A stretch of DNA of 64,000 bases, from assembly GCA_013368325.1 (NCBI GenBank), contig JAACJK010000001.1, positions 3,648,596 through 3,712,595 on the forward strand, given 5' to 3'. Shown in pieces: positions 44,678 through 64,000 of the stretch. This DNA comes from Ephemerocybe angulata (taxonomy: Eukaryota > Basidiomycota > Agaricomycetes > Agaricales > Psathyrellaceae). The stretch's first letter is position 1, and the number at the start of each line of letters is the position of its first letter. A program made the position numbers and the translations under genes. A model generated the notes under the pieces. The model saw only the letters and a program-made list of their open reading frames with translations. It searched no databases and was not told where the DNA came from.

Positions 44678-44682
44678 AAACC
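44674..44682 (-). promoter_or_regulatory. Candidate -1 frameshift site at the gag stop
   Basis: On the element strand gag ends GGT TTT TGA. A one-base backward slip re-pairs TTT with TTT and turns TGA into TTG, entering pol. It is the same layout as in Gypsy-1 (GAT TTT TAA). Confidence 0.5.
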
Positions 44683-45945: not shown

Positions 45946-46393
45946 GGCAGGAGGTGGACTTGGGTAGTCAGGGAGCTTTGGGGAGTACGGCGGCGGTGGT
46001 GACGATGGGGGTGGGATGCGGCTAGGCGGGCTGGTAGGGTGCAGGTACTGTGGGACTAGTGGTAGGACTAGTTCTCCACGAAGGCCAGAGAGGTAGAAGC
46101 CTGGGATAGAATCCTGGGTTTCCTTAGCGTGGGGGCAGGGTTGTTCTGTGCAGTCGGTGTAGACAGTTAAGCCGTTCCGGTCGATGTACCAGTAGACTGA
46201 GGACCAGACTGGATCAGTGGTGGATCGGAGGTAGGCGGAGTCGATCTGTAGGCCGTGAAGGTACGGTGCACAGCTGTCCGGTTGAGAGCCGTCAGAGGTT
46301 GCAGGTGAGGGGGAGCAGGTGGGCGCGATGGTGCCGGCTAGCAGGGGCTGCGAGGACGATGAACGTCGGCGCAGTTGGGAGGACTTGATCTAA
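45946..46393 (-). other. Gypsy-2 untranslated leader
   Basis: About 450 bases between the 5' LTR and the gag ATG. No coding sense seen; it should hold the RNA packaging signal and the primer-binding site. Confidence 0.6.
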
Positions 46394-46943
46394 TGTGGCG
46401 AAGACGCCGGCTGATGTCGGACGAGCGACGAGCGGAGAGCAGAGAGCAGAGGAGCAGCGGTCGGACGAGCGACGAGCAGCGATGCAGATACAAGAGCTGT
46501 ATAGTCAAAGGTAAATAGGATACAGGGAATAGGAGCAAAGCGACTATGTACCTGTATAGTCAAAGAGATCAAGTGGGGAATAATGAACGAGTAGCTACGA
46601 GTATATATGTGTCCAGATGATCTCGAACGAAAATAGAACAATAGAATGATCCAAAGAACAATAGAGTCCATATGAGTCGATATGACTAAAAGGCAGCACG
46701 CGGGCAGTGCGCCTGAGAACAAAGGTGTGAACAAGGTGTGAACGTGCTGTGCACGAGAATAAGAAGCACGAACGTGCTGTGCATGAAGTGAGGGGAAAGC
46801 TCAGAAGAGCGAAGGCAGTGTGAAGGTGTGCAAGGGTGTGCAAAGGTGTGCAAGAGTGTGCAGGAATGCGCACGAATGAATAGTAAAGGAAGAAATGAAA
46901 GGAAAAGAAGAGAAAATAGGTAGGCTAACCGGTGTTCACGACA
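46394..46943 (-). repeat. Gypsy-2 5' LTR
   Basis: 550-bp LTR followed (plus strand) by the target duplication TAAGC at 46944-46948. Appears identical to 40173-40722. Confidence 0.94.
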
Positions 46944-46948
46944 TAAGC

Positions 46949-47680
46949 CTCCTCGGCAGACCTGATAATCCCCTTCCTCGCACCCACAAATCTCGCCATC
47001 GATTAGGCAGATAAGAGCGCGGGCGTTCGGTGGGGGCAGGCCGCATTTGTAAAACCCTACGCCCATTGGTACATGTTCTGTCCCATCGAATAGATCTCGA
47101 GCCAAAGACGAGGGGGGGAGGGCTGGGGTGGAATGGAGGCTGGACGTTGACGTGGTGGTTCGGGACAAGTTGGACGACAAGAGCTCAGACCAAGCTCGGA
47201 GCCTCTCGGAGCACGGCGTTGCATCGGTGATGAGATCAGGCGTGGGATAGGGGCTCCCTGCTCGATTTTCGTCCCGCCGTCTACTGTTGCTCCCTTGTAT
47301 TGTTAGGGAAATAAATAATGTTAATGTACCACTACCGGATTGAGAAGATTTAGATCTCGCCTCGCCGGGACTTAGATTAGAACTGAATGCATCGCCGCCA
47401 ACAATGCCGGTCTAGGCAGAAATGACTCAAGCCAAACGACACCTTAAACTAACGATTACAAGATAACTCTCTGACTTTGGGTGGGCGAGATAGGTAAGTG
47501 TGCAAAGTCCTTCGTTGATGAGCTAGTTCAAAATAGTCAATTAGGAAAATGACAATCGATTCGAAGTATGAAGCACCGCGTTCTATCCTGTCGGTTGTAC
47601 TATATAATGAAATGAGTAACAAGATTGAGATATTTAGTGGTATGAGTATGTGTTAGACTACTCTCAGTGGTATACCTCAG
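46949..47680. repeat. Right part of the interrupted repeat, then spacer
   Basis: 46949-47250 continues the repeat broken by Gypsy-2: GCACGGCGTTGCATCGGTGA (about 47211) corresponds to the end of the 30.4-32.2 kb copy. 47260-47680 is AT-rich spacer with no gene. Confidence 0.45.
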
Positions 47681-48133
47681 TTATACCCGATCTTTAACCT
47701 GCCTGAGCGCCATCCACCAAACGTGAACCTTCCCTCCCATCGCGCGAATCGTGGACACCATTTCCCCGATGTCAGTGGGACACACAACTCGCTTGCACCT
47801 CTCGTACTGACTCCTCCCATAGAAAGGGTCCGTACCACCACCGAACCCATCGGATGCGGGACCAGCAACAAATTGCATGAGACGGTTGGACTTCTCGTCT
47901 TCCGTGGCTCCCTTCATCCATTTCTCCGCCCACTGCAGAAAGTAGAGGGCAATATTGTAGGTCGGACCATCCACTTCGACAAGTTTGCCCATGAAGGGCT
48001 CCCGTTTTCTTCCAAAGCAGAGCATTTCAATTTTCTGGAGATGCGGCGCCGAGAACTTTTCGAGCCAAGAGATGTCCATTAATCCAGATTGAATGGCGAG
48101 GTTCTCCACCCACCTACTGACACAGGCCATCAC
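47681..48133 (-). pseudogene. 5'-truncated F-box/LRR-like paralogue
   Basis: A 150-codon minus-strand frame matches the C-terminal fifth of the F-box gene at 35531-37871: VENLAIQSGLMD against VESLAIQSGKID, WLEKFSAPHLQKI against WLEEFSAPNLQKI, WAEKWMKGATEDEKS against WAEMWMKGATGEEKS, and MVSTIRAMGGKVHVWW against MVSRIRAIGGNIDVRW. The frame itself is open to its stop at 47681, but the match ends near 48120 and everything upstream (F-box, LRR) is missing. The left end of the KDZ element starts within the next 50 bases, so the transposon probably cut this gene; the other part would be beyond 64000. Confidence 0.8.
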
Positions 48134-48159
48134 ATCACCTAAGGCTCATCCGGGTTCAC

Positions 48160-48330
48160 TAAAGCCCCATCAAGATGGGTGATCTGGGCCTAACTGGGCC
48201 CAGTTCTGTGTCAAATCTTGATGGCCCAGTTGGGCTACCGGACACCGCCACCAGGCGTAGGCCCCGGTCCCGTGGTCAAAGCCCGTCGGACTCAAATCCG
48301 ACGGCGGTCGGACGTCGGTACGATCCTCGA
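48160..48330. repeat. Left subterminal region of the KDZ element
   Basis: Contains the palindrome CCATCAAGATGG (48166), CTAACTGGGCCCAGTT (48190) and ATCTTGATGGCCCAGTTGGG (48217-48236), then the first CCGNCGG motifs (about 48270-48320). Similar GGCCCA..TGGG words in inverted orientation close the window. Confidence 0.5.
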
Positions 48331-48377
48331 AACGGACTGTGTGATTGTGAAAATACGTAGAAAATAGCTACAGTCCG

Positions 48378-49247
48378 TTACTCCTCCTGTGTATCACTAA
48401 TGTCCAGCTCCGCATGGTGTGCATAAACAATGTGATTCAGCTTCTCCAGGGCACTCAAGCTCAAGATCCTGGTCCGGACGAGCTTCTCATGGGCAATCAG
48501 GAGCTCGTTGAGCACGGTATTCATGATCCCGATGTGCTCATCGACGAACCCCAACACAACGATAACGGCCTCGGCATCGCGCAAGTCCCATGGGCTTGGG
48601 TTCTTGGCTTGGACGTTGGCAGAAGAGCTCCCCACCGACGCCCCCCCTGACGCTGCCGCCCCCGCCTTAGAGGACCCTGCCTCCCCCGCCTTAGAGGACT
48701 CCGCCCCGAGCGATCTCCCCGCCGACCCTGCCGAGGTCCCCGCCTTAGTGGGCTCTGCCTCAAGCGCCGTCTCCAAACCCACTGCCGTTGGAACCCCACT
48801 TGCATCCTCAACCCTTTTCTTCTCCTTCCCTTTGCCCTTCTCCGATCTTGTGTGCTTATCCTTCCGCGGCTTGGGATCCGGCGGGGCGGGGTCGAGTTTG
48901 GTCGGAGCGGGAGCGGGCAGATCGGGGGCGGGAGGAGCGGAAGCGGAGGGGTTCAATGTGTTGATCACGGCCCAGAAATCGGTGATCCCCATGGTAACTA
49001 GATCCAGATGAGAGGTGCGGAGCATCGAAAGGCTGCTGGACGTACCTGGCTGGGAGCCGTCGGGATCATCGATGTCCATGTTTACATCGTCAACCGGCTC
49101 GGTATCTTGAACTTCTACATTGTCGACCGGCTCGGTACCTTGATCGAATGCTTGGATTCAGCAATGCATTAGAGAAGGTAACGAATACTCACCTCTCTTT
49201 TTCTTCACCTTCAACTTCCTTGGCCTTACTTTCCTCGAGCTTGACAT
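48378..49247 (-). CDS. KDZ cargo gene 1, hypothetical 271-aa protein
   Basis: Two minus-strand exons, 49193-49247 and 48378-49138, with a 54-base intron (GTGAGT..TCAAG). A 48-base GTACGT..CTAG segment near 48995-49042 could be a further intron without changing the frame. Exon 1 is very basic (SSSRKVRPRKLKVKKKRG), a likely nuclear signal. The middle is Ala/Ser/Pro-rich with imperfect repeats of a SSKAG-type unit (48650-48770). The C-terminus (WDLRDAEAVIVVLGFVDEH, then NTVLNELLIAHEKLVRTR) looks helical. No family recognised. It is transcribed divergently from cargo gene 2 across 177 bases, suggesting joint expression. The role is unknown; presence inside the element suggests a transposition or chromatin helper. 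Confidence 0.7.
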
Positions 49248-49424
49248 GGCGGTTGGTGGTAAAGGGCAAGCAAGCATCCGAGCTGAGCCCGAAATTGGGA
49301 ATGGACCCGCACGTGATGCGAAAGTTCAACCCGGCGGGATCAAACCCCGTGATGCGAAAGTTCAATCCGGCGGGATCAAATCTCCGGCGGCAATTGCTTT
49401 TCTTTCACAACTACAATCTCCTCC
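49248..49424. promoter_or_regulatory. Shared divergent promoter of cargo genes 1 and 2
   Basis: A 177-base spacer between two outward-facing ATGs. It holds a tandem 34-base repeat (GATGCGAAAGTTCAACCCGG and continuation, at about 49315 and 49349) that includes CCGGCGGG, a variant of the element-wide motif. Confidence 0.45.
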
Positions 49425-52182
49425 ATGTCGACCTCGAAGAAGCAGCCATCCGCCCAGGTGAATATGTCTCCAGACCCTCGCGTAAGCGTTCGAGAGGCAG
49501 CCACCGCCCTCAACAGCGCCCTCATCGAAGCCTCCACCACCTGGAAGGCCCCTTCGGAACCGGGACAGGCTCATCCGTACCTGGTGGAAAAACTCCTCTT
49601 CCTCCGGGCGCTTACAGTGAGCATTCTGCCTTTTTTCGTTCTTGTCATTAACTAACATTCTAATATTCTACAGGATAAGTTACTAAAGGAACTTGGGCAG
49701 CTCACGCGCGGCAGTGGGGACTCCTACCAGTCCATGGGCATCACTGGCAGAGTCATGGCCTGGATGCAAGAGCTTGCCAAGCCAGCGACGACGCTCAAGG
49801 ATCCGGGGGCCGCGCTCGACCTCGGTATGTTCAAACGACAACCGTACCCACCATCGTCCGTCAAACTCGCCAGTCCGACCGAAACGGCACCGGGTCCAAA
49901 CAGCGGGAGGAGTCTCAAGGGTAAGGAGAAAGAGGTGTTACCGGCTGAAGGGAGCAGCGAAGGTGAGGATGGGGGAGATAGTGAAGATGAGGAAGGGGGA
50001 GAGAGTGAAGATGAGGATGGATCGGAGTCTGACTCCCAAGCAGAGGATGAGTTTCGACCTGCGAAGGACGATGACCCAGAGGAGGAGTCCGAGGAAGATA
50101 GCGAGGAAGAAGATGGTACGTCTCTGAGTGCCTTCCAGGGAAATTGCTACTGATTCAATCCTAGAAGGTGACGATAACATGGTCGTTGACGCCGGCGCTT
50201 CGACAAAGCGAAAAAGGTCTCTCGTTGTCCCGGCCCCCGTACCAAAGCGGTTGAAGCTCGAGGCTCAACCAACTCCCGCCGTTTCTTTCCCCAACCCCAC
50301 CAGTACCATCCCTGGCTGGATACCTCCGAACGAAGTAAACCGTGAATACTCTGAGCTGGAGGGGGTGGGGTACGTATTCGCGGAGAAGTGCCGAAAATGC
50401 CTTGAGCGTCAGTACGACTACTGCTACGTGAACCTGGGCGACAGGCCCCTGGAACCCCATCCCAACCCCGGGAGCGCTTGCGCGACTTGCAAGAGGCAGA
50501 AGGGGAAGTGCGAGAAGACGTTGACGCCGAGGCCACGTGGACCTTCAGTCGCTATTACGGTTGGGGGAAGCAGAGGGCAACAGGGAGAAGATGATCAGAA
50601 GCCGGCGAAGAAGGCGAGGAAGAGCCAAGCTGGCCCAGTACGTGAACCCAGCTGGGATGACCTTCATTCACCTGGTGGTACACTAACACTTTACACCCCT
50701 TGTGGCAAATTCAAGTTATCGGATGAGGCCATGGCTGCTGCAGGCGCCATATCCCACCAGTCAACGTCCGCCGGGAAGGAAAAGGAGGGGGGAAAGTCCG
50801 ACGGGAAGGAAAAGGAGCGGAGAAGGTCCGCCGGGAAGGAAAAGGAGGGGGAAAAGGCCGACGGGAAGGAAAAGGATCGGAAAGGGTCCGACGGGAAGGA
50901 AAAGGAGCGGAGAAGGTCCGGCGGGAAGGAGAAGGAGGGGAGCAAGTCCGACGGGAAGGAGAAGGGAGGTAGCAAGTCCGACGGGAAGGAGAAGGAGGGG
51001 AGGAAGTCCGACGGGAAGGAGAAGGGAGGTAGCAAGTCCGACGGGAAGGAGAAGGATGGGAGGAAGTCCGACGGGAGGGAAAAGGAGGCAGGGACATCCG
51101 ACAGGAAGGACAAGAAGTCCGGCGGGAAGGACTCTCCTCGGAAAGGGCCCGTCGGGACAGTCTCCGTCGGGACATATTCGGTTGACCCGTCCGCGGCAAC
51201 AGCGTCCATGCGAGCCCCGAGAACCCCAAAGCCAACCAGAAAGGTGGACCCACTACACAGTGGGGACGTATCTGGTGGAAGCGGGTTGGAGGATCGGGTG
51301 AAGGGACTTTCGGAGCACAGGCAGAGGATGGATGGGGAGTTGGCAGATGTGAAGGGAATGTTCGAGGCTGTGAAGTTGGCAGCGGCGGGAATCATGCCTT
51401 TGACGGACCGGGTCACCGCCCTTGAGGCGGGTATGGAGGAACGGCAGGGAGAGGAGGGCTCGGCTGGTCAGGAACTCAAGAAGAAGGTCCGGGATTTGGA
51501 GGTCCGGATTGACAACTACAGTACCATAGCCGGCAGTGACACTCAGAGGCTGGGTGATAGGGTCAAGGCACTGGAAGACCTCACTGTGGAAGGCAGTACG
51601 GATGAAGGGAGCGACGACGACCAGGAGGGCGGCGTGAAGGAGGAGGTCAAAGCTCTGGCGAAGTCGGTGGAAGAGCTGTCGTCAAGGGTTGGTGCGATCG
51701 AGAAGATTGGGGGTCGGGTCGAAGCGTTGGAGACCAAGGTCAAGGAAATTCCAACTAGGGCAGCTGCGAGGGTGAAGGAGCTGGAGGACAAGATCGCTCG
51801 CCAAGAAGCACAACTCCAGGAGGCTCAGGCAACTTGGGCGAGGCAGGTGGAGATCTTCAAGGGGGAGATGGTTGGCCGTATCCGGGCGGTGGATCTGGAC
51901 GCTGACGCAAGGTATAAGGCTCTCAGTGAGACTTTGGCGCAACAGAGTACCACCCAGGCCGCCATTATGGAAAAGATGGCCATACCAAACCTGGTACCCG
52001 CCACCTGGACTCCTACAGCTTCAGTCAGGGAAAGCGGGGCAGAAGGGACCGGGAACCCAGAGGAGCTCAGGTTGACGCGGGATGAGGCGGAGGAGTCCGG
52101 CGGGAACACGGAGATGGACTTTGGAGGCGGACCGGCGGTATCGACTCCGACTACGCCATCCGACGGAAGGAGTCCGGAGTAG
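49425..52182 (+). CDS. KDZ cargo gene 2, six-cysteine cluster and coiled coil
   Basis: Exons 49425-49616, 49674-50115 and 50165-52182 give about 883 aa. Order of parts: a globular N-terminus; an acidic stretch (about residues 150-210); basic KRKR and PKRLK nuclear-signal-like motifs; a cysteine cluster CRKC-x7-C-x18-CATC-x6-C (about residues 287-327), which resembles a fungal zinc cluster with non-canonical spacing; 10-residue GKEKEGGKSD-type repeats (about 415-535); then long coiled-coil segments (VTALEAGMEERQ, VRDLEVRIDNY, VGAIEKIGGRVEALETKV). DNA binding is inferred. The frame continues in phase beyond the TAG at 52180 for about 108 codons to 52506 with coding-like Lys/Pro-rich sequence, so the stop may be a recent nonsense change (CAG to TAG). 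It faces cargo gene 3 tail to tail. Confidence 0.75.
50760..51135 (+). repeat. 30-bp coding minisatellite built on CCGACGG
   Basis: About eleven units of the type TCCGACGGGAAGGAAAAGGA plus ten bases, each encoding GKEK plus six residues. Every unit carries TCCG(A/C)CGGG, the element-wide motif, so the motif has been amplified in frame. Confidence 0.8.
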
Positions 52183-52683
52183 TTCGGAGTTGTTCCAACC
52201 GCCGGGGCGGTAGAGGAGGCTCCTGCGAGTGGAACTTCGAGTTCTGCCAGACGGATGGAGTTGCCCGCACTGGAGGTCACGAATCCAGATCGGTCGACTC
52301 ACGTCCAAGATCCCAGCAGCCCACTTACCCCTGCGCCCGAGGACCCGGTACGAGAAACGGAGCAAAGTCCCCAGGGCAAGGCAGCTGAAAAGAAGAAGCG
52401 AGGTGGAAAGAAGAAGCAAGGCTCCGCGGTTCCTAGCCGAGTTCCGCCAGGAAGAGCATCAAAGGCTGGCGGCCCTGGTCCCAACACAGCGGTCAATCCT
52501 TCGTGAAGTTCTGCCCCCTCCCTGCATTCACCATTCTGTACCCCTCTCCAAGTCTGTTTTTGATCTGTGCATACTCATACCCGATATACGTCTCTTCGCA
52601 AATATATACCTTGTTATGTTATATGCAGGGATCGAGACCATACAGAAAATTTAAAGTCATAAAGGTATGTACGTTGGGGCACT

Positions 52684-55600
52684 TTATTCAGGGATGTATC
52701 TTTTAACAGGGACTCGTTGACGTTTCTGAGACGTAGTTCCCCATTTCTGCAGATCGTCGTTGAGTTCTTTCCTTCGGCTGGGAGTGGTCAAGGGCATATC
52801 CTCCACGGTAAGATTCTTCTTCTTAGACTTCTCCTTGCCCTTTTCCTTCGAAGTAGACAAAGGTACATCCTCTTCGGGCACACCCTTCTTCTTAGACTTC
52901 CCCTTGCCCTTTTTCTTCGTTTTGGGCTTTACGGGGAGCCTATCAGCTACGTCTGACTCAGGTCCAGAGGCTGAGGTGGTAGCTTCCGGCATATGTTTAG
53001 CGTCCGCTGGAGTGACTTGGACGTGTACTGCCAGTGGTAGAATCTCTGCCGGAGGAGTCGGGTGTGCGTGGGATTCAGTTGTCACGTTATCCAGGACCTG
53101 CTTTGGGGTGACCTGGGCAGGGTTCATGGCAAATTGAAGTGCCATATTCCTGACATCCTCGGGAAGTGAGTTCCACTTTAAGAGAGTGTCTGCAGTTGCT
53201 ACCGGTTGGCTAGATGGAGTGATTGGGCTTGGAGGCAATGCACTGAAGGGGAGGAAGGTAGTACCGTCTCCGTTTCCCGCCGGAATGGTTGACCCCGACG
53301 GGAGGAGTCCGACGGTCGGGTGGGAAGACTCCGACGGACCCTCAAAGACCGACGGGTCTGTTCTGTCCGACTCATTTGTTGACACCGCCGGCTTTCGTTC
53401 CTGCGGGAGGAGTGACCCCGCCGGGACGAGTCGAACGGTCGGATGGGACGACTCCGACGGATCTTGAAAGACCGGCGGGTCTGTTAGGTCCGCCGGACTT
53501 GCTGTTACCGCCGGGTTCAGTCCGTCCGACAGGGTATGACTTTCCTGAGGGAGGAGTGCCGAAGGATTGGGGACTTTCTTCCTTGGCTTCGGCCTGCTGC
53601 TCACACCCTCTTCTCCTAACAAATCTTCTGTTGGCACGCCAAGTTTTTCAGCATCTTCCACAAGGACTGCACTCCTAGTGGAAATCCTCTCTGCTCTCCT
53701 GTTTCCTGCAGGAGCCTTGACCTTTGTTGCTACCTGTGCCTTCCCCTCCTTCTTTCCTGCCGGAGCCCCGGTCTTGGTTGCTACCTGTGCCTTCTCCTCC
53801 TTCTTGCCTGCAGGGGCCCCGACCTTGGTTGCTACCTGTGCCTTCTCCTCCTTCTTGCCTGCAGGGGCCCCGACCTTGGTTGCTACCTGCGCCTTCCCCT
53901 CCTTCTTTCCTGCAGGAGCCTCAACCTTGGTTGCCACCTGTCCCTTTCCCATCTTCTTTTTTCCATTTTTCACCCTTGACTTCCTTTCCTTTCCATCCTG
54001 CTTCACACTGCTATCTTCATTTAGTTCACGGTCAGGCTCCTCCTCCTCCTGCAGCTTCCTTGGTTCCCGGACAACAGGACTGCCTTTAGAATTGGGGTAA
54101 TGGTGAAACTCGAAGACCATAGCTTCACCGTCAACCTGCCTCCGATACCAGTAATAGAGGAGCTTCTCTTGCTGTCCAACATTGATTTTGGTAGGATCCA
54201 CAAAGTAAGGGGAAAGATCGTCTGGAAGATATTCCTCATTGACATAGTCTCTGATTGATGACTGCAGAATTCGCCATGGGGGGTGAGAGGCATCGGGATC
54301 ACGTCCTGATGCCAAAGCTTTGAGGGGAGGTAAGATTAATGCATTCCTAAGGAGAGCAATGAACACACCCAAATGAAGTGTAACAAAAGTACGAATGAGG
54401 TGTGGATAATATTCCCATCGAGGGAGACCCTTTGGTAAGACGGATGGGTTTGGAAGGATGGGTTCCATGTAGCTATTGAGGGGGAGACTTAGGAGAGGCT
54501 TTCCACGTCCCCTTAGTTTTGGGGTAGGGAGGCCAGCTAAGTTATCTTCAAATTCCCCTTGAATGAAGGTGGACCAATTCCGAAATATGCCTGAATCCCT
54601 GATGGCACTCCTGTACTCCCGAACAAAACGTCTTTTCCCCAACTCCGCCCCACAGTCTACAAAGGCTGAGCAGGCACTAGGAAGTGAGAAATGTGCCAAA
54701 GTACATTTCGGAATGGAGGGGACTTACACGAATATGGTTCCTTCCCCGGGCCTTCAAATCCCACCAATACAGCCATCCGGACTCCCATGGACTTGTACAT
54801 GTTATGAATGAACTGACGGACAACTGGGAGAGCTCGGTCAAATGCAAGCCTAGGACATTCTCTATAAATCCATGCTCTTCAAAGGATAGTTTAATTGACG
54901 TACTGCCTTTGAACTTCTGGGGGGGTCCTTCCTTGTTCCAATTGGCGGCCGTATCCTGCATCTCCTTAACCTCCTCCTCGGTTAAGAGAGAAAGTTCGTA
55001 GCTCAATGCTTTCTGGAACATGTGAAATGGTGTAACCCGAACGACTGGCATGGCAGCTTTTCCCTTCTTTGTATTCCTTCTCCTTCCCTTCACATCCTTG
55101 CCTTTACTTCCATTCCGCCTCCCATCCTTCGGATTCTTCCCGTCGGGCTTTCTTCCTTTCCTGTCCAAGTCCGAGGAGTCCGACTCCGACTCCGACTCCG
55201 AGTGTGCCTCCGAGTCCGACTCTGACTCCGAGTCCGAGTCCGAGTCCGAGTCCGAGTCCGAGTCCGCCAAGTCAAGGGAGCCATCATCAATGTCCTCTAT
55301 GCTAATCTGGCACTTTGTATGGGCCTCAAATAGCATCTTCTGTCTGACTTTCACCCTCTCCGGATACATCTTGTAGAATACCTGCCTCACTGACCACTTC
55401 TTCTCCCAGAGTTCTGCACCCAACCTTTTCCGGCAACGAATACGAAACCACAGGACCACATTCTGTGGAGAACGGTCACTGACTTTTATGTTTATAGAGG
55501 AATCTCCCAACTCACGTTGATTAAACCAGTTCTATCCCCAGTCCCAATTTTTCCCCCCTCCCTCTCCACTTTTTCTCGGATGCCATCCAAGAAGTGAAGG

Positions 55601-55842
55601 GCAACATTGATTGCAAACTCCCGCCGCTGGTGCTTGGGCAGCTCCTTGTAGTCGTCCTTCCTATCATCTATGTATTCTAGCTGAAGGGTGGTGAATTTCG
55701 AGTCAAGGGCCTCAGCAGGTCCCTTCGGCTGGTCCTCGGAATCCGATAGCCCGTCATCTTCCTTTTCTTCTCCTTTAATCTGGCCACCGGCGAGGTCTGG
55801 AGTATTAGAGTTTCTTTCCTTGACTTTGGCAGGGAGAGACAT
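52684..55842 (-). CDS. KDZ cargo gene 3, large repeat-rich hypothetical
   Basis: About 1,000 aa on the minus strand. Exon 1 is 55516-55842 (ATG at 55842), exon 2 about 54728-55462, exon 3 to the TAA at 52684; intron 1 is GTGAGT..CACAG. The second intron lies around 54650-54730 and its exact borders are uncertain because the best donor and acceptor disagree in phase. N-terminal region: HQRREFAINVALHFLDGIRE, then WFRIRCRKRLGAELWEKK. A Ser/Asp/Glu tract (55175-55265) is encoded by a GAGTCC hexamer run. Central globular part: WSTFIQGEFEDNLAGL and LLYYWYRRQVDGEAMVFEF. Then five 17-residue APAGKKEGKAQVATKVG repeats, a Pro/Ser-rich linker full of CCGNCGG-derived codons, and a Lys-rich tail. No named domain recognised. 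It is divergent from the transposase gene over 187 bases. Confidence 0.65.
53275..53535. repeat. CCGNCGG array inside cargo gene 3
   Basis: About eleven CCGACGG, CCGCCGG or CCGGCGG motifs in 250 bases, and an imperfect direct repeat that encodes DPSESSHPTV twice (about 53320 and 53450). The frame stays open through the array. Confidence 0.75.
53700..53960 (-). repeat. 51-bp coding tandem repeat
   Basis: Five units of 51 bases (plus-strand core GTTGCTACCTGTGCCTTC) coding for GAPAGKKEGKAQVATKV-type segments of cargo gene 3. Confidence 0.85.
55175..55265 (-). repeat. GAGTCC hexamer microsatellite, coding
   Basis: About fifteen (CCGAGT/CCGACT)n units give alternating Ser-Asp and Ser-Glu in cargo gene 3. 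Confidence 0.9.
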
Positions 55843-56029
55843 TGCGTCAAGTAAGTGAAGAGGAACAAACAAGATAATGACCCCAATATCAGACCAATAT
55901 CAGAAAGGGTCCCAGCCGGATCTTTGGAGCATATGATAAATCTGGGGCGTTGTCTATTTCAGGCTGATCAATCGATAACCACCACTGTTCCCGCAAGAAG
56001 CCTCTCCTGTCTTCCTCCACCTAACCACC
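55843..56029. promoter_or_regulatory. Shared divergent promoter of cargo gene 3 and transposase
   Basis: A 187-base spacer between the ATGs at 55842 (minus) and 56030 (plus; context CCACCATGG). No clear TATA box. Divergent arrangement suggests co-expression. Confidence 0.4.
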
Positions 56030-59000
56030 ATGGTCAAGCATAAGATCGGTAAACGCAAGGTCACCGAACTCGATATCTCTGTCAAGACCACAAAACGGGG
56101 AAGACAAGTTTCCTCCGTTGCGGTTCCTGCCGAGAAATCCCTCTACCGACCATTGAAACGGAGGAAGATCATCCCGGTTATCCCTGCAGACAACAAAGCA
56201 CAGCGGGGGTCCAGCAGCTCTTCCTTACCAGAGCCCCTCTACTATGAATCCATCTTTGAAACCATTGATGGGAAGACGTCCCAGGGAAAGGTCAGCCATA
56301 TTGAGGCTTAAGAAGCAGGAAATGATCTGATTATCTTCCTTCCAGACAACCCATGACTATCTCAAGGCATGGCTTGATCAAGGGAAGTGTGGGGCATATC
56401 TGGACAGGCTTCTCATCACCGAAGCAATGCCCAAACCCACATGTGTGCAGTGCTTGAAAGGAGTAGCAACTTGGAGATGCCTGGATTGCGGTAGCCAGCC
56501 TCAGTACTGCGGAGTGTGCTGCCGGATTTCCCATCGGCGGACGCCATTTCACCGGGTTGAATACTGGAACGGAAGGTACTTCCAGCCTGCCTGGCTCTGG
56601 CAGGCGGGGACCATGATATGCCTTGGGCACCAAGGGCACATGTGTCCCGAGTACCAGAAAAAGATGTCTGATCTGGAGAAACGTTCACTGAAGGTAAATG
56701 GCTGCCTCGACTCCCCTCCCCTGGAGGAGGATGATACCACATTTGGGGCAAAACCAGCAATCACTCAGCTCGGATCAGGGCGCTTTGTTCTCTTCGTGCA
56801 CCTCAATGGTTTCCATTACCTACCCGTCTACCCCTGCCTCTGCGGTGAAAAGGTCCGGCTACCTGAAGATGAACAATTTTTGGAAGCTGGCTATTTCCCT
56901 TCTACTTGGACAACAATTGAGACAGTGTTCACTCTGGAACTGCTCAAGGATTACCATTTAACCAAGACCGAAACAAAGATGTCAACGGAAAACTACTGTG
57001 ATATTCTGAAGCGCAAGACCAATTTCGCCTTTCCTTCCAAAATTGTAAGTTCTTCTTTACATCCTTGTATTCTAAGCTGACAATAGTTGGGTTGTAGGAC
57101 AGAGCTCGAGAGCTTTCACGGGTCTGGCAAATGTACAACTATATGATTCTTCTCAAGAGGCATGGATTTGGTCATGAAGGGAGGGGAAGGAAACCTGAAA
57201 AGGGGGAGCTGGCTTTATACTGTGCAATATGCCCCCAGCCCGGAATAAACCTACCTTCAAATTGGGAAAGCCTAACAGAGCTGTGAGTTTGCCAATCTTC
57301 ACCCATACTTTGATGATTAAGGGAGTCATAGATGGCTTTATAAACGATATATAGTGATAGACGGCAACTTCAAGCTTCATCATCTCATAATCCGTGGTCA
57401 GGATCGGGGCATCTCCTTGATAGCTGGGGCTGCTTATATGATCGAGAAGGCCTACCAAGACAAAGTCCTCAAAAACGCCCCAGAAAGCAAGCAGGTAAGT
57501 TTCTGGCATGATAGCTAAACCAGTGCTAATAGGATCTCTGTTTTATAATGCTACTCATGAACTAATGAACTATTCCCTGTGTCATCGGAATCGGCGACAC
57601 CGTCGGATCGACACCGTCGGATTGACACCGTCGGATTGACACCGTCGGACGGGACGGACGTAACTATGTCTATCCGTCAGATCGTTACCGTCGGACGGTA
57701 TGGTCGGAACTACCTCCATCCGCCGGACCTTATCCTCGGACCTTACGCTCCGCCGGTTTCTCTCTACCGTCGGAATCCCTCTGTCGGGAAAACTCAGGCT
57801 GCGACGTGCTCTGAATACAAGGCTGTCCAGGATAAGGATAAGATGAAGAAGGGCTATGATGCATCTGGGTTATTTGGGAGTGCCTGTGCCCGTCATGGCT
57901 GCTTTTGCGGTGGAGCTCTCGTGGACATGCAGAAAGGAGAAAGGTGAGTGCCGCCACCTTACAGAGGACTGTGCTTGAACTCACTATATTTCCAGACAGG
58001 CAAATGCAGACCTGTCAGTAAACGAAGCCTTCGACACCACCAATGCAGCTGGGACACCTGGTGCTTTGCTGGCCTACGATATCAACTGCCAGTTTTGTAT
58101 ACATTTCCGGGAGAGGATTGATAAAGCCCATCACCTTACCATCCCAGCGGACCTGGATATCACGTACCTCATTGGACTCTTCCATATTCATGGCCATGGC
58201 GAGATATGCCTGCCTCGCTTTGCCAGTACCTTTCTCCCAGGTGCTGGGATGGCCAGTGGGGAGATCATTGAATCCCTCTGGTCTATACTCAACCAAGCAG
58301 CAAGGATAACCAAAACGATGACTCCCGCTCACCGACGGGAAATGATCGATGCATGCGTAACAGACATTAATTGGAAGAAGCTGGTATCAGTTGGTCTGTG
58401 CTTTTCCATCCTGTCCTCGGCATATGCTTATTAGAATTACTTTCAGATACCTACATCACCACCCAACTGCTTAAAGCTAGGACTGAGAAGGAGAAGGCAG
58501 ATGATGACTTTGCTCTACTCAATGACACAGTGAGCCCCGCCCAGAAGGAGCTCTGGCAGGAAGAAATGGAGACCGCAAACGACGAGAGGAAGGGGTCTGA
58601 CGTTTCATCCATGGATTCATATCTTCCGAAACTTGAAAAAGGTAGCTATCCGTTCTTCGAACTGAGAATGGTAGGCTCACTAGGGTTAACTTCTTCTTTT
58701 AGTTAAGAACACAAGAGCAATTCGATCTAGCCTCATGGCTGAAGAGCAGAAGACAAGGAAAAATGTGGGGCTAGCAAACTGGGTTGCAACAGGCATGGAA
58801 ATTCAGGAAGCACAGTCTGTCTTTCTCTCTTGCATCTCAGGACAGTTGTACTAATATCGGAAATAAGATCAGCATTACGTTCAACTGCAATGGCAATTAG
58901 AAATGCAACGGAAGGGTCCGTAACAGACCTGGATGTACAGAAGAAACGGGAGGTCCTCATCAAGCAAATAGACAACTGGTATAAAATCGCGGATACTCTT

Positions 59001-59920
59001 TTCCCCGGTTTGGACCCGACAGCCGAGACATCCAAGATGACGGATAAACGGGACCCCTGTGTTTGCGAGAACGAGTGCCAATGCCCACCACATATTCCAG
59101 ATCCAGACGTCGACTTTGAACTGGCCGAAAATATAGTCCTTTCCCTTCCCTCTGACTTCCACGATTTACCCGAGGAGCTTTCAGCAGCTGCAATCACAGA
59201 AGGGGAATTGCGGGTAGCCCAGGCAAACGAGGCACTCGATACCCTTCGGAGTCTCATCACGAAAAAATCAACATACTACCGGGCCAACAGGGAACTGGCC
59301 AATGGAACGAGAGACCGTACAAGATCGTACGACAGTATCAATGCCTTGGAAAAGCTCATGGTTGCAGCCAAGAGAACATACGCAAAGGCTAGGTCCTCCT
59401 TGGAGCGGCTCGGGCTCCTTCCTGAACACCCTCAATTCAAAACCCTTCAAAAATCAGACACGAAGGCGGTAACAGCAATTTACAGCCCAAATGCTAGGGG
59501 CCAGAGGAATGAAGGCCTTTCTTGGATTTGGACAAGCCTAGGTATTGACCCTACAGAGGAAGGGTATTTAGCAGAAGGTGAGCTTTGTCAAGAAAAAACC
59601 GTCCTCTCCGCTAATTGGCTGTAGTCTACCGGGTCAATTGGATCAGGGCCAAGTCCAGGGCAGACCGTTGGATGGAGGAGGTAATCATCCTGGAGCATGA
59701 GATGGAATGGTTTGTTCGTTTCTGCTTATACCGGCAGAGGAAATGTCTGGATTGGGCACAATCAAACGAGGAGGGTGTGTCCGCCGGACATATGGCATAC
59801 GCATTCCGACAGGCGGACATGTGGGCCCGCCGGGCCTCCGCGGGAAAGAAGCAGTTCATGGAAAAATGCGGGGTTAGGGTTACCATCGAAGATCCGATTA
59901 TCAATGATCCTACAACTTGA
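56030..59920 (+). CDS. KDZ transposase with CxC2-like cysteine cluster
   Basis: About 1,060 aa. Exons: 56030-56290, 56346-57044, 57098-57282, 57332-57494, 57798-57943, 57996-about 58393, 58447-58641, 58703 on to 59577, 59625-59920. The N-terminus (THDYLKAWL, then CVQCLKGVATWRCLDCG, CGVCCRISHRRTPFH) is the cysteine cluster typical of KDZ transposases, followed by LGHQGHMCP and CAICPQPGINLP. The catalytic part carries YIVIDGNFKLHHL, ACARHGCF..LVDMQKGER, LLAYDINCQF, GLFHIHGHGEICLPRF and GEIIESLWSILNQAA, which include the expected acidic residues. The end (VYRVNWIRAKSRADRW, EMEWFVRF) is also family-typical. Odd points: the fourth intron is 303 bases, swollen by CCGTCGG motifs, and near 58827-58852 the frame only joins across a 26-base GT..AG gap, too short for a normal intron, so an indel may have broken this copy. 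Confidence 0.92.
57575..57795 (+). repeat. CCGTCGG array inside a transposase intron
   Basis: Begins with four tandem 14-15-base units GACACCGTCGGAT (57596-57650) and continues with dispersed CCGTCGG and CCGCCGG to 57780. It makes this intron about five times longer than its neighbours, yet the donor GTAAGT and the acceptor CTCAG are kept. Confidence 0.85.
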
Positions 59921-59978
59921 ACTTGAACCACCATCATCCCCTACTTGTACACTCTTTCCATCCATTTTTATAGCACAA

Positions 59979-61067
59979 ATGCTTGAAGACCTTGCCATCC
60001 TCGCTAAATTAAACGCCCTTACTCCGAACGGCATGCAATCGGTGTTGTCGTACTCCGCAAGCCGCCTTCGGGCTGCGCTGTGCATCCAGGCCGTTGTCCC
60101 GATGCCTGAGGAGTACATGGGTACATACCACGACCACCTGAAGGAAGAGCTGGTATGTATTTCTCAATTCAGAGTTCTATTCTGACCTGTCTGTTAGTTT
60201 GCCTATTCCTTTTTGCTCGGTTCAGTCATGCTGCTCCATCCCAACCCGAAAGACCTCACAATTTCGAAAATCGCTACGACGGCGAGTCTGCTATACATCC
60301 GCGGCACCCTTGTGGATAGAGAAGAGCTCAGGCGTATTGCCAATACCTACGGTAGCGCTGGTGATCACATCCTTGTGCATTACGAGGGCGAATGGTGGGA
60401 GAAAATGGACGAGCCCGTGCAGGCAATCCATCCGAGGGACGTGTTTGGCTGGTGGGAAGTACAGAAACACAGGATCGCCCCGGTCTTCCCCCGGGTCCGG
60501 AACGTCATCAACCTCGCCGAGATGAAGATCGAACAGCTAGACCAGGCCCGTGACCTCGCCGTCTCATCCGTCGAGCTTATGGATTCCCAGCTCGCGACCA
60601 GCGCCGAACGGATTGCCACACTCACCCGCCGGCTCAACAATGCGAAAAGACTCCGCGGGGAACTCAAAGGCCTTCTCGCCGACAAGGAGGACATGACGAT
60701 CCATCTCGAAAAACTTCACATTCGGAGCATGACGGAGGAACTGCCGGCCAATTTAACGGGCGATTTAACGGAGGACCTGATTCGACCCCTGGAACCTGAA
60801 GTGGTCCGCGGCGAACAGACAGCACGAAACAAGCATGACAGGAAGCAGAAACGAAAGGGTAGCGTCAATGAAGCAGACAGCGTGAAAAAGCCGAAGACCG
60901 TTTCATTCCACGACGACCTTGCCACCAAGATCAATGCCGCCGCAGACGCACAAGCCGCGGAGGAAGAAGAAGACGAGCAGGCGGCCGTAGAAGCGGGCAG
61001 CGGAGAGGAGGACTCCAGCGAAGGTGATGATGATGGTGGAGAAGATGACAGCGATGACGACCAGTAG
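59979..61067 (+). CDS. KDZ cargo gene 5, acidic-tailed hypothetical
   Basis: Two exons, 59979-60152 and 60198-61067, joined by a 45-base intron (GTATGT..TTAG) give 347 aa. It starts 58 bases after the transposase stop on the same strand, as a tandem neighbour. The N-terminal half looks globular (LSYSASRLRAALCIQAVV, LLGSVMLLHPNPKDL, WEVQKHRIAPVFPRVRNVI). The next part is helical, probably coiled coil (MKIEQLDQARDLAVSSVEL, RIATLTRRLNNAKRLRGEL). A basic patch NKHDRKQKRKGS may be a nuclear signal. The last 60 residues are mostly Glu, Asp and Ala. No named family recognised. Acidic tails of this sort suit histone or chromatin contact, but that is a guess. Confidence 0.75.
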
Positions 61068-61159
61068 TTAACCATGAGTCCCTGTCCTCTATCTCCATGC
61101 GAGAATTTGTATTTTATCTTCACTATGCCTGTATTGATGTATTGCTCTCCTGTCTCCGT

Positions 61160-61510
61160 CAAGTCCGTCGGACTCACACACCGTCGGGTGAAGCACTGTC
61201 TCCTGCCGCGAGTATATTTCATCCCGCCAACCGTCCCCATTCTACCCGCCGGGAGCTTGGACCACAAATTGTGAATGCGACCCGACGGACTTAGACCGCA
61301 GGGGCTCTATCCGTCGGGACCCTTCCGCCGCCGGGTTACACCCCGGTTTGTCTGCCACCCGCCGGCTTGTGGTTCAATGCGACCCGACGGGTTAGCCCGC
61401 AGGAGTTATGTCCGCCGGGTCCTACCCCGCTTTAGCCGCCACGCCGTCGGAGTGTGGCCCAATATCGGATGAGTGTAAACCCGTCGGACTGTTTGTGCTG
61501 GAGGACTCCG
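61160..61510. repeat. CCGNCGG-rich spacer with tandem unit
   Basis: Between cargo genes 5 and 6. More than a dozen CCGTCGG, CCGACGG and CCGCCGG motifs. An imperfect unit of about 110 bases is repeated (AATGCGACCCGACGG at 61272 and 61378, each followed by a CCGCAGG word and CC(G/C)CCGGGT). Confidence 0.8.
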
Positions 61511-61606
61511 ACAATTTGAAGCTGGCGTTGGCAGGTATTGATCAGTGGATTAGTCATTGATCCACGGATCTTCATTCCCGCACAGCATTCTTCCTTCTTG
61601 ACCACC

Positions 61607-62301
61607 ATGGAGACATCCACAATTTCTCCCCCCTCTATTGATATCTGCACTACAGCAGAATGGATGTCCTTGCTGGGCTACGTGCATGGCCGAATGCACA
61701 AACTCCTTGATTTCTTCCAACTCGAATGCGATACTCCCTACCATCAAGAGAATTGGCGGACTTGGGTTAGTGTTTTTAGCAATGAACTTGTAGGTTTAAG
61801 TTCCTGTGATCCGCTGCTCCCACAACCTGACGGGCCATCCAGAATATTGGTCTCACCCTGCAAGGATTGATGACAGCCAGCGATCTTGGAAGGAGGCCCG
61901 GTACCTTCTACCAGTCCATCATCAAGGAGGTCGTCATCCACACTGATGACTGCAAAGGCGTCTGGTTTGCCCTAACCGGTGGACTGATTACCAGTCCCGT
62001 GTACCCCGAGGACGAACTTCTCAGATCGGACAGTAACCGCTGGTGGGAAGATAAACCATATGCTACTATTTCTGACGTCGCTCGGCTTTGGAGGGAAGGG
62101 GGAGGGGCTTTGAGGGATGGTGGAAATCGGCCCAGGGATGAGAAATCACGGGGTATAGATGAAGCTGACTTGCAAGGTGTCTTGAAGGGATTGATTGAAG
62201 GTTTAGATGCCTCGATCGCCAATGTTGAGGAGAGTAGCCGTGACGTAGAGGAAGCCTATAAAGCAGCATATCAAGTTCGAAAAGCTTGGAATAGGTTGTA
62301 G
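61607..62301 (+). CDS. KDZ cargo gene 6, hypothetical 205-aa protein
   Basis: Exons 61607-61765 and 61843-62301 with a 77-base intron (GTTAGT..ATCCAG), phase 0. The ATG has a good context (ACCACCATGG); the upstream extension of the open frame has no ATG. Sequence: AEWMSLLGYVHGRMHKLLDF, then GLTLQGLMTASDLGRR, VVIHTDDCKGVWFALTGGL, ATISDVARLWREGGGALRDG and a C-terminal helix GVLKGLIEGLDASIANVEESS. Short, soluble and with no named domain. It ends 30 bases from the end of the TET/JBP gene on the other strand, so the two genes are convergent. Function unknown. Confidence 0.75.
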
Positions 62302-62331
62302 TATATCAGTATAACAGCCGATCGATGTAAT

Positions 62332-63744
62332 CTATGCCGCCGGGTGAATGGATGCCAGGAGATCGGCAAGGAATGGGGGTGAAATCTCTGCATACTCAGT
62401 TAGAGCTCCCCAACCCACAGAAGGCTTAATAAAACTAGCAATACATATCCTATCCCCCTCTGTTCTTGGCGCACCATGCTCCAGGAGGTAGCCAGGGATA
62501 ATAAAGCTTGTCCCTGGATTGTAGCTAAACCTTCCACCTAGAAGTGGGACCTCCAATACGCCGTTTCCATATGTCCCAAAAACTGAGAGTATATCTTGGA
62601 GAAACTTGCCACCACGGTTATCACGATGGAAGGGGGTCTCTCTGTTGCAGATGAAAGCAAATCCAGTGAAAGGTGAAGTCCAGTACTTGAAGGCTTCTTG
62701 TGTCAATCCGGTATTTGACGTTTCAGCCCTACCTGATGACAGTTCTATGAGAACTTGCAGTTGCATCTCATACAGCTTTGGATTCACAAGGGAAAGGAGG
62801 GCGCCAATAAGAGCATTTGTTCCCGATAGCATGTCAATCAGCTCCATGCCGCCAGCCCGTTTCTTTGAGTTCAGGGATGCGGATGGGCCGGGAACTGAAA
62901 TCGGAGGCTAGGTGTTGAATCAATAAACTTTCCGCAAGTTAGAGGCCTCTATCGCTTACCCCATGACCTTGCTCATACCAAGCGGCAGCCAGGTTTACGA
63001 GGCCGGGAGGGATTTGGCCATGATCCGGATTTGCAAAAGTTCCTGTTTCGTCCGCCAGTGCCCGACGGATGTTGCAAGTCCGCCGGATCTTGAGAGTCCG
63101 CCGGACCTTGAGAGTCCGCCGGACGTTTATAATCCGACGAATATCCAGAATCCGACGGACACATCCGAATCACGGATTTCGGTAATTTGCCAACGGTCTT
63201 GGCTGCGTCAAAAACGGCAGGACTGCCACTTTATGAGGATTGCAGTGGCATAAAATATGATTCAATGGACTCACGCATCTCCGAGATGTGAAAATGGCAA
63301 GTACCACGCAATGGCCTTACCGGCAGAGTCAACGAAGACCATTGGGGCATCCTTGAAATTTCTAACAGATTCCGGAGCCTGAAACGTCCTCCGCAGGTAG
63401 TCTTCTCGAGTCCCTTCTTGCAGGGGGATAGAGAGACCTTCAGCAACATCCTCAAGGGAATAGGAGAGATGGACTAAAAAAATGCAATCAGAAAGAAGAA
63501 CAAGGCTGTGCTAAAAACCTGGTTGACCGACCGGGGTGCTGAGTGCAATAGAACTCCCACAATTGTCCCTATTTCCCTTGGACATCCAAGGGAACTCTTG
63601 AGGGCGTTACAGCAGGAGATGGACACGAGCCTTTTGAGCCCAATATAACTTCGCCAGTCCAGCGTATTCTTGCAACGTCCTGAGACCTGGGGTAGATCTT
63701 GGGACATTGCAGCTGCTGTAGTTAAGAAGAAAGGCTCCATGCAT
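62332..63744 (-). CDS. TET/JBP-like 2OG-Fe(II) dioxygenase, possibly interrupted
   Basis: Minus strand. Recognised exons: 62332-62907, 62960-63042, 63275-63473 and 63519 up to at least 63744. The last exon carries the catalytic half: ICNRETPFHRDNRGGK gives the His-x-Asp iron ligands. GVLEVPLLGGRFSYNPGTSF, LLEHGAPRTEGDR give the second His and the Arg that binds 2-oxoglutarate. Upstream exons read GLVNLAAAWYEQGHG and VFVDSAGKAIAWYLPFSHL, typical of fungal TET/JBP proteins, which oxidise 5-methylcytosine in DNA and are known KDZ companions. Problems: an in-frame TAA at 63607-63609 splits exon 63519-63744, the true 5' end is not found, and the exon pair across the 232-base intron (63043-63274, with a CCGNCGG array) does not join in phase with the obvious donor. 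Probably a recently damaged copy. I name the family with good confidence, not the exact substrate. Confidence 0.75.
63055..63175. repeat. CCGNCGG array inside the TET/JBP intron
   Basis: Tandem CTTGAGAGTCCGCCGGA-type units (63090-63125), then CCGACGAAT and CCGACGGACA variants. As in the transposase, the array sits inside an intron. Confidence 0.8.
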
Positions 63745-64000
63745 GTTTGGGGGTCACAATATACATCCGTGGGGCTTGGGGCAACATGAGGCCAAATGAT
63801 GGTCCGACACATGGTCCGCCGGAAGTGGCAAATCCCCAAAATTAGGAACGACGGAATGGCCCGCCTGACCCGCCGGCTCATTTTGGCTTTTCTGCCTTTC
63901 CATCTCCCGGCGGGTTTATTCCGCAATGTGTTTCCCAGCTGGGCTATTGATCTTGGGCCAATTCACCCCAGTTGGGCCATCCCACATTGGTCCTTCCTTA
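63745..64000. repeat. Right edge: subterminal KDZ sequence
   Basis: May contain more 5' coding sequence of the dioxygenase (a minus-strand frame is open to 63926) but I cannot join it. CCGCCGG motifs at 63800-63915. CCCAGCTGGG (63931) and CCCCAGTTGGGCCATCCCAC (63967-63986) mirror words at 48195-48240, so the right terminus should be close to, or just past, 64000. Confidence 0.45.

What the first reader, a model, noticed from the sequence alone, without database searches (positions are those of the whole stretch)
48160..64000. Giant KDZ element carrying a TET/JBP dioxygenase and five other cargo genes
Seen: a KDZ transposase (DGNF, YDIN, ESLW motifs), a TET/JBP-like dioxygenase (H-x-D ... H ... 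R) and five further spliced genes in about 15.8 kb, with element-like sequence at both ends. Known: fungal TET/JBP genes are expanded in agaricomycetes and associated with KDZ transposons. Inferred: all seven genes move as one unit and the cargo proteins (cysteine-cluster/coiled-coil, acidic-tailed, basic) are helpers that act on DNA or chromatin together with the dioxygenase. This could be a transposon that edits its own epigenetic marks.
Basis: partly seen in the sequence, partly recalled or inferred. Interest (0 to 1): 0.9.

Follow-up and report, generated by a model that had tools for sequence, protein, structure and literature searches.

The report
Seven-gene fungal transposon carrying address words
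A 16-kb fungal transposon carries seven genes, one for a predicted TET-type enzyme that would oxidise methylated DNA, and holds 69 copies of a short DNA word that a related element replaces with a word of its own; this word likely serves as an address by which the element's own proteins find it and keep it from being silenced.

Summary
It runs from 48111 to 128 bp past the contig end (16,018 bp), starts CACC and ends GGTG, has a 43-bp perfect inverted repeat 37 bp inside each end, and probably a 7-bp target duplication in a host gene that reads open once the flanks are joined. All seven genes recur in order in two more copies; parts of the set lie beside 23 of the 26 closest KDZ transposases of this genome. 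TET+ Kyakuja elements are already published (Kojima 2025), so that part is a new member.

What I did not find described is a DNA word. CCGNCGG occurs 69 times in the element and 6 times in the other 48 kb, at ends, in introns, gaps and coding repeats. A cousin (C207) carries direct CGGNCGG in matching places; another clade carries CGGCCG; a fourth family TGTCGGR. Everted, direct and inverted CGG pairs are the known site types of fungal Zn2Cys6 proteins, and the element encodes a six-cysteine, coiled-coil protein. I propose that it reads the word and brings TET and transposase to the element, as VANC serves VANDAL in Arabidopsis. Binding and demethylation are untested; several families show no clear word.

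The parts
48104..48110 (.). target-site duplication CTCCACC (left copy)
   Evidence: same 7 bp directly outside the right end on C232; joined flanks read as one open frame
48111..64000 (.). TET-bearing Kyakuja (KDZ) transposon; the last 128 bp lie beyond the contig end
   Evidence: ends and length from the copies on C22, C117, C232
48148..48190 (+). left arm of a 43-bp perfect inverted repeat; right arm beyond the window, both 37 bp inside the ends
48378..49247 (-). G1: small protein, function unknown
   Evidence: open frame; relatives in C22, C117, C207 and weakly five more places
49425..52182 (+). G2: acidic protein with six-cysteine cluster, basic repeat and coiled coil; candidate reader of the word
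   Evidence: open frames, C207 relative keeps the cysteines; exon borders judged by eye
50389..50511 (+). six-cysteine cluster C-x2-C-x7-C-x18-C-x2-C-x6-C of G2
   Evidence: Pfam Zn_clus 9.4 bits, cut-off 21
52684..55842 (-). G3: cargo protein, divergent from the transposase gene
   Evidence: 19 hits in the genome, 12 of them (one per KDZ gene) 2.3-4.7 kb upstream of a KDZ gene
56030..59920 (+). CxC2-KDZ transposase gene; intron 57494-57805 holds 8 CCGNCGG
   Evidence: PF18803, PF18758; sites
59979..61067 (+). G5: acidic-tailed cargo protein
   Evidence: 18 hits in the genome, 14 KDZ genes have it 2.1-3.0 kb downstream
61165..61487 (.). cluster of 11 CCGNCGG between G5 and G6
61607..62301 (+). 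G6: small cargo protein
   Evidence: in the four copies and C207, one weak hit elsewhere
62332..63707 (-). TET/JBP dioxygenase gene; an intron holds 5 CCGNCGG (63062-63158)
   Evidence: PF12851; CcTET 8jkk/7vpn E about 3e-29 with HRD, Gly331 and Asp337 equivalents kept
50768..51170 (.). cluster of 14 CCGNCGG in the coding repeat of G2
53277..53514 (.). cluster of 11 CCGNCGG in the coding repeat of G3
63816..63913 (.). three CCGNCGG at the right end, upstream of the TET gene

Best explanation
This is a complete 16-kb TET-bearing Kyakuja (KDZ) DNA transposon studded with its own family-specific CGG word, and the word likely acts as an address that the element's six-cysteine coiled-coil protein (G2) would read to bring the TET enzyme and transposase onto the element's own DNA. 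Shown here: the ends, the likely target duplication, the seven genes and their recurrence, the 69 CCGNCGG sites, and another word in the matching places of a related element. Inferred: G2 is a CGG-reading zinc-cluster DNA binder; bound along the element it concentrates TET, which oxidises 5-methylcytosine there; the element stays transcribable and its ends usable; joint change of reader and word would keep families from activating each other or host genes. TET activity is inferred from homology to CcTET.
For: CCGNCGG 69 inside, 6 in 48.2 kb outside, spacer exactly 1; first of 864 gapped trinucleotide pairs, 52 distinct contexts against 6.3 expected, best control score 17 against 64. In coding repeats of G2 and G3, different codon phases, more than in any of 500 synonymous shuffles each. 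C207: direct CGGNCGG 57 times in corresponding clusters. CGGCCG in the clade L006/L008/L009/L010; TGTCGGR in C66; words largely private to families. Six-cysteine cluster in the G2 slot of the window, C207 and L025, half cluster in C66. [quoted passage not shown] CpG o/e 0.75 against 0.89-1.20 elsewhere in the window, with 16% of CpGs in the word. Same design as VANDAL/VANC.
Against: No binding, methylation or expression data. G2 is below the Pfam Zn_clus cut-off and its structure prediction failed. L025 has the cysteine cluster but no CGG word in 17 kb; of 22 KDZ loci of about 3.4 kb tested, 13 do not exceed their simulated maximum with a CpG word, and one of three controls exceeds its own. 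Low CpG o/e is shared by C207 and L012 but not by most KDZ loci. Published oxidised-cytosine maps, as cited by Kojima, also show retrotransposons marked, which suggests untargeted action. G2 was found by sequence in 4 of 26 places only.
Confidence: 0.45

Rival explanations
1. The word is a transposase or accessory-protein site used to recognise and pair the ends, like subterminal TnpA sites of En/Spm (recalled); the CxC2 cluster or G2 binds it, and TET acts independently and without target.
For: Sites do cluster near both ends, and the CxC2 cluster is part of the transposase.
Against: Most of the 69 sites are far inside, in a transposase intron and in coding repeats of G2 and G3, where end recognition does not need them.
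Confidence: 0.2
2. The word is an ordinary activator site: G2 switches on the element's genes as a transcription factor, with no recruitment of TET.
For: Sites lie between G1 and G2, between G5 and G6 and upstream of TET; fungal zinc-cluster proteins are mostly activators (PMC5559640 passages, and recalled).
Against: Half of the sites are in coding stretches and others in introns; density is about as high there as in gaps, which a promoter switch would not need.
Confidence: 0.2
3. The arrays are neutral minisatellite growth: seed words spread by slippage and conversion inside the element without function.
For: Many sites sit in tandem units of 14, 18 or 30 bp, and an array differs in size between near-identical copies.
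Against: 51-52 sites remain after look-alike contexts are removed; repeats of different unit length and codon phase share one exact 7-bp word; one-base variants are raised at most 2.5-fold against 35-fold for the exact word.
Confidence: 0.13

Closest known systems
TET+ Kyakuja DNA transposons of Agaricomycotina (Kojima 2025, PMC12730594; parts 1-5 of 7 and a term search read)
   Same: KDZ transposase, AG-type TET with HxD, Gly331 and Asp337 equivalents, CA..TG termini, 7-bp target duplications.
   Different: Paper states no TIRs for Kyakuja; here a 43-bp perfect inverted repeat lies 37 bp inside each end. In the parts read I saw no dispersed word and no further Kyakuja cargo genes; it suggests that AG-type TETs act without target.
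VANDAL transposons with VANC anti-silencing proteins, Arabidopsis (PMC5735166, PMC10398659; passages read)
   Same: Short word at high density nearly private to one family, tandem arrays in introns and gaps, other words in related families, arrays that grow and shrink.
   Different: VANDAL is a Mutator-type element without an encoded 5mC oxidase; its words are AT-rich (YAGTATTAY) and mainly noncoding, here they hold two CpGs and also sit in coding repeats. Binding is proven there, not here.
Fungal Zn2Cys6 proteins such as Gal4, Leu3, Put3, Pho7 (PMC5559640 passages)
   Same: CGG pairs as everted, direct or inverted sites; cysteine cluster with a later coiled coil.
   Different: G2 spacing C-x2-C-x7-C-x18-C-x2-C-x6-C, below the Pfam cut-off; coiled coil far from the cluster; gene carried by a transposon.
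KDZ1-KDZ3 of Cryptococcus neoformans (PMC12810828 passages)
   Same: KDZ transposase with a CxC-type cysteine domain, elements of 9-11 kb.
   Different: Long TIRs (139-241 bp), CxC1 instead of CxC2; 4-8 bp duplications; no TET mentioned for them in the passages seen.

Membership tests
TET+ Kyakuja (KDZ) transposon | KDZ transposase domain with CxC cluster | tested here: met
   PF18758 E 2.5e-25, PF18803 E 8.2e-18
TET+ Kyakuja (KDZ) transposon | AG-type TET/JBP with HxD, Gly331 and Asp337 equivalents | tested here: met
   alignment to CcTET chains; residue roles from PMC12730594
TET+ Kyakuja (KDZ) transposon | 7-bp target-site duplication | tested here: met
   CTCCACC (window left, C232 right) and GCATGGG (C207); C22 has 8-9 bp (CTTCTGACC), C117 none
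TET+ Kyakuja (KDZ) transposon | 5'-CA..TG-3' termini | tested here: met
   CACC...GGTG
TET+ Kyakuja (KDZ) transposon | no terminal inverted repeats | tested here: inconclusive
   outer 37 bp pair only at CACC and scattered bases, next 43 bp pair perfectly
TET+ Kyakuja (KDZ) transposon | transposase branches with Kyakuja rather than Zisupton or Dileera | not tested
   tree holds only this genome's copies
VANC-like sequence-specific anti-silencing | short word at high density nearly private to the element family, in arrays | tested here: met
   triples 171 genome-wide against 9 reversed, at least 111 in copies of this element
VANC-like sequence-specific anti-silencing | related families carry different words | tested here: met
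   C207 strongly, L008-L010 clade and C66 moderately, others weakly or not
VANC-like sequence-specific anti-silencing | an encoded protein binds the word and lowers methylation | not testable with these tools
   needs protein and methylation data
Fungal Zn2Cys6 cluster (Pfam Zn_clus) | match above the Pfam cut-off | tested here: not met
   window 9.4 bits against 21; no Zn_clus hit for C207, L025, C66 pieces
Fungal Zn2Cys6 cluster (Pfam Zn_clus) | six cysteines in two CX2CX6C-like halves | tested here: inconclusive
   six cysteines in window, C207 and L025 with varying spacing; half seen in C66

The most novel reading that the evidence does not exclude
TET-bearing Kyakuja transposons run a self-addressed de-silencing system: a family writes its own CGG code (everted, direct, inverted or single half-sites) through its introns, promoters and even codons, and encodes a fast-evolving zinc-cluster reader that loads its onboard methylcytosine oxidase onto that code alone. 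Address, reader and eraser would travel in one transposon, a fungal counterpart of VANDAL/VANC.
Probability: 0.4. Interest if true: 0.92.

Novelty: new variant of a known kind. Interest (0 to 1): 0.77.

Why it matters
Fungal genomes can hold dozens of transposon-borne TET genes (46 in C. cinerea as cited by Kojima; 25 over the Pfam cut-off here), and it is open whether these enzymes act on their own element or on everything. A family-specific CpG-bearing word with a candidate reader makes that directly testable with one protein and a few DNA probes. If true, plants and fungi arrived independently at the same solution, and the CGG grammar would offer natural readers for aiming cytosine oxidation.

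Tried and rejected
Small-element hypothesis (56-60 kb only): rejected; the ends with a shared duplication enclose all seven genes.

Public homologues: G2 and G3 gave nothing at E 0.01 among 7993 and 7977 scored candidates; no control query was run, so the collection may lack such fungi. Structure prediction of the cysteine region failed (pLDDT 37.6, two sequences), so no fold search was made. Two papers (Iyer 2014, Chavez 2014; DOIs recalled) are not held, so I could not check whether they mention such words. Paper searches for KDZ, TET elements, their motifs or readers.

A dispersed word in every family: not supported. One search tested 22 KDZ loci of about 3.4 kb, four longer stretches and three controls against 20 simulations each. 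Above the simulated maximum with a CpG word: window (and its locus L002), C207, C66, L009, L010, L012, L013, L026, and L023 barely. Tie: L008. Above or level only with a word lacking CpG: L011, L016, L019, L029. Below: L004, L006, L007, L014, L018, L022, L025, L027, L028, L030, and C117 9-17 kb. One of three controls passed, with a word lacking CpG.

Counts beside KDZ genes use the 26 best of 88 KDZ places. TET was assigned to 18 (C207's, 1.3 kb away, fell under the distance limit); G5 14, G3 14, G1 9, G2 5, G6 5. At C117:1015678 the G1, G2 and G3 belong to the element in which that copy is nested, and C117:1024568 lost its G3 to the limit, so I read G1 8, G2 4, G3 14. Three places (C197, C58, C117:32711) had none. 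Of 30 TET hits 12 were unassigned: five below the Pfam cut-off, one the C207 copy, six others.
Full report
What is there. The window is the end of contig C125 of a 58.7-Mb assembly in 232 contigs. From 48111 to the contig end lies a DNA transposon. Pfam finds CxC2 and KDZ transposase in the gene at 56.0-59.9 kb and Tet_JBP in the gene at 62.3-63.7 kb. The TET domain matches solved CcTET chains at E about 3e-29; its HRDNRGGKFLQD keeps the His, Asp and the Gly331 and Asp337 equivalents (residue roles from PMC12730594). Five further split genes (G1, G2, G3, G5, G6) fill the rest; exon borders were judged by eye from open frames.

Ends. Near-identical partial or split copies lie on C117, C22 and C232. 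The three share one right end...GAATGGGGTG, and then diverge. The left ends of C22, C117 and the window start CACCTACTGACACAGG. The outer 37 bp of the two ends pair little beyond CACC; the next 43 bp are a perfect inverted repeat at the same offset on both sides. The cousin C207 keeps end-specific outer sequences, CACCCCATTCAGCAAGATG on the right and CACCCACTGACACAGG on the left. Window left flank and C232 right flank share CTCCACC directly at the ends, so these contigs are probably the two halves of one insertion, although their overlap is 99.4%, not 100%, identical. Joining the flanks gives one open frame (..ELLYLVAPTVENLAIQSGLMDISW..), and an 82% identical paralogue at C232:259439-259732 spans the junction. 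C207 has GCATGGG; C22 has CTTCTGAC plus an ambiguous C; C117 has no duplication. CA..TG ends and 7-bp duplications fit TET+ Kyakuja as described by Kojima.

One unit. G1, G2, G3, KDZ, G5, G6 and TET occur in this order on C125, C22 and C117; by coordinates C22 is interrupted after G2 and C117 within G3, the latter by a stretch that holds another KDZ and TET gene. C232 holds the right half up to its contig end. C207 holds G1, G2, G3, KDZ, G6 and TET, with stops in its KDZ and G3 matches and no G5 match. Among the 26 best KDZ places a convergent TET was assigned to 18, in 17 of them 3.8-4.6 kb downstream; G5 to 14, 2.1-3.0 kb downstream; divergent G3 to 14, in 12 of them 2.3-4.7 kb upstream (corrections in Tried and rejected). 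In all 23 of 26 have at least one cargo gene. The cassette is thus old and general in this genome.

The word. CCGNCGG occurs 69 times in the element and 6 times in the other 48 kb; no site lies between 40 kb and the element, and the first inside is 173 bp from the left end. Spacers 0 and 2-13 of the everted pair give 2-10 sites each in the element, spacer 1 gives 69. In a scan of 864 gapped trinucleotide pairs it ranks first, also after look-alike contexts are removed (52 of 69 remain, 6.3 expected, score 64; best score in seven control stretches 17). Sites lie at both ends, in a transposase intron, a TET intron, between G1 and G2, between G5 and G6, and in coding repeats. Against ten open stretches, 34 are inside and 35 outside; two of the 35 (59781, 59827) lie in the last transposase exon, which was not in that list. 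In G2 16 of 17 sites share one codon phase, in G3 10 of 11 share another; in both, codon choice makes the word more often than any of 500 synonymous shuffles (17 against mean 3.2, max 8; 11 against mean 1.6, max 8). These are tandem repeats, so sites are not independent, but two different repeats hold one DNA word. In C22 the intron array has about 20 units of 14 bp against 4 in the window.

The word changes. C207, whose transposase exon is 79% identical in protein, has direct CGGNCGG as its first word (57, 40 distinct, 8.7 expected) besides 11 everted sites, in clusters at the left end, G2, G3, the KDZ intron and the right end, as in the window. The clade L006/L008/L009/L010 (support 98/99) has CGGCCG 7-9 times per 3.4 kb, 0.8-1.4 expected; L008, L009 and L010 are only 70-73% identical in DNA. 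C66 has TGTCGGR 31 times, none beyond 16 kb of the 20 kb read, at about seven times the outside rate. A table of words against families is largely diagonal, though words were chosen from the same data. L012 (GCCCGAT), L013 (CTCNCGA) and L026 (TGCGGAG) rest on 3.4 kb each. L025, with 17 kb, shows no CGG word. Genome-wide, everted triples number 171 against 9 for the reversed pattern; at least 111 lie in copies of this element (102 in sequence held, and 9 listed in the left part of C22); the listing is capped, so the rest is unplaced. Direct triples number 49 against 55 reversed, so they are not enriched genome-wide; by my count of the listing 12 lie in C207 and 10 more within about 9 kb of another KDZ or TET hit.

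G2 has C-x2-C-x7-C-x18-C-x2-C-x6-C and a later predicted coiled coil (sub-threshold coiled-coil hits); C207 keeps the six cysteines at 43% identity over the aligned piece, while its transposase exon is 79% identical. A similar cluster sits in the G2 slot of the L025 element; the same pattern search found none in 73.7 kb of background, two low-complexity matches within the window element and none in C66, where ACFNCLRSHKRC was found by eye. Pfam Zn_clus is below cut-off, so I do not file G2 in that family. [quoted passage not shown] That match between the kinds of word and one protein class is my main reason for naming G2 as reader; it is inference.

Methylation footprint. The element's CpG o/e is 0.75 (0.70 with the word masked) against 0.89-1.20 in the eight other 6-kb blocks; C207 is 0.76, but most other KDZ loci are 0.85-1.02. 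This fits past methylation of this family with loss of CpG outside the word. Among one-base variants of the word, CCGNCAG, a deamination product, is raised most, 2.5-fold; the other such product 1.3-fold.

Mechanism. I commit to self-addressing: G2 binds the word along the element and brings TET, so that oxidation is concentrated there. Shown: anatomy, recurrence, word, change of word. Inferred: binding, recruitment, oxidation, benefit. The nearest proven model is VANC (passages of PMC5735166 and PMC10398659). Rivals are an end-recognition site, a plain activator site, and neutral spread of repeats.

Noticed in passing
G000:C47:76492-80316 and C117:3248880-3252744 (L051 = C47:76485-77084): Two elements of about 3.8 kb with both ends of this family (right 96%, left 92%). 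The 600 bp read have CCGCGG in a repeat and one CCGNCGG, so these short derivatives may carry yet another CGG pair.
   Followed up: partly
G000:C117:1005000-1022250 (L033, L034): A distant KDZ-TET element (L025) nested in the C117 copy, with its own six-cysteine gene (near C117:1006951) but no CGG word; its most enriched 6-mers (GACTAA, AGGTGG, ACCTAC) come from repeats.
   Followed up: partly
window 47657-48103: The element sits in a host gene whose relatives (70-82% identical in DNA) lie on C125, C232 and C55, an expanded family.
   Followed up: no
window 44001-46943: 94.8% repeat shared with C232; the open frame at 44674-46389 looks like a retroelement Gag with CCHC-type cysteines (by eye).
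   Followed up: no
window 60198-62301: G5 and G6 both hold a WWE/WWED..P stretch followed by a tryptophan-bearing segment; they may be old paralogues (by eye).
   Followed up: no
G000:C117:1036000-1036999 (L036): Seven CCGNCGG within about 1 kb outside the elements described here.
   Followed up: no
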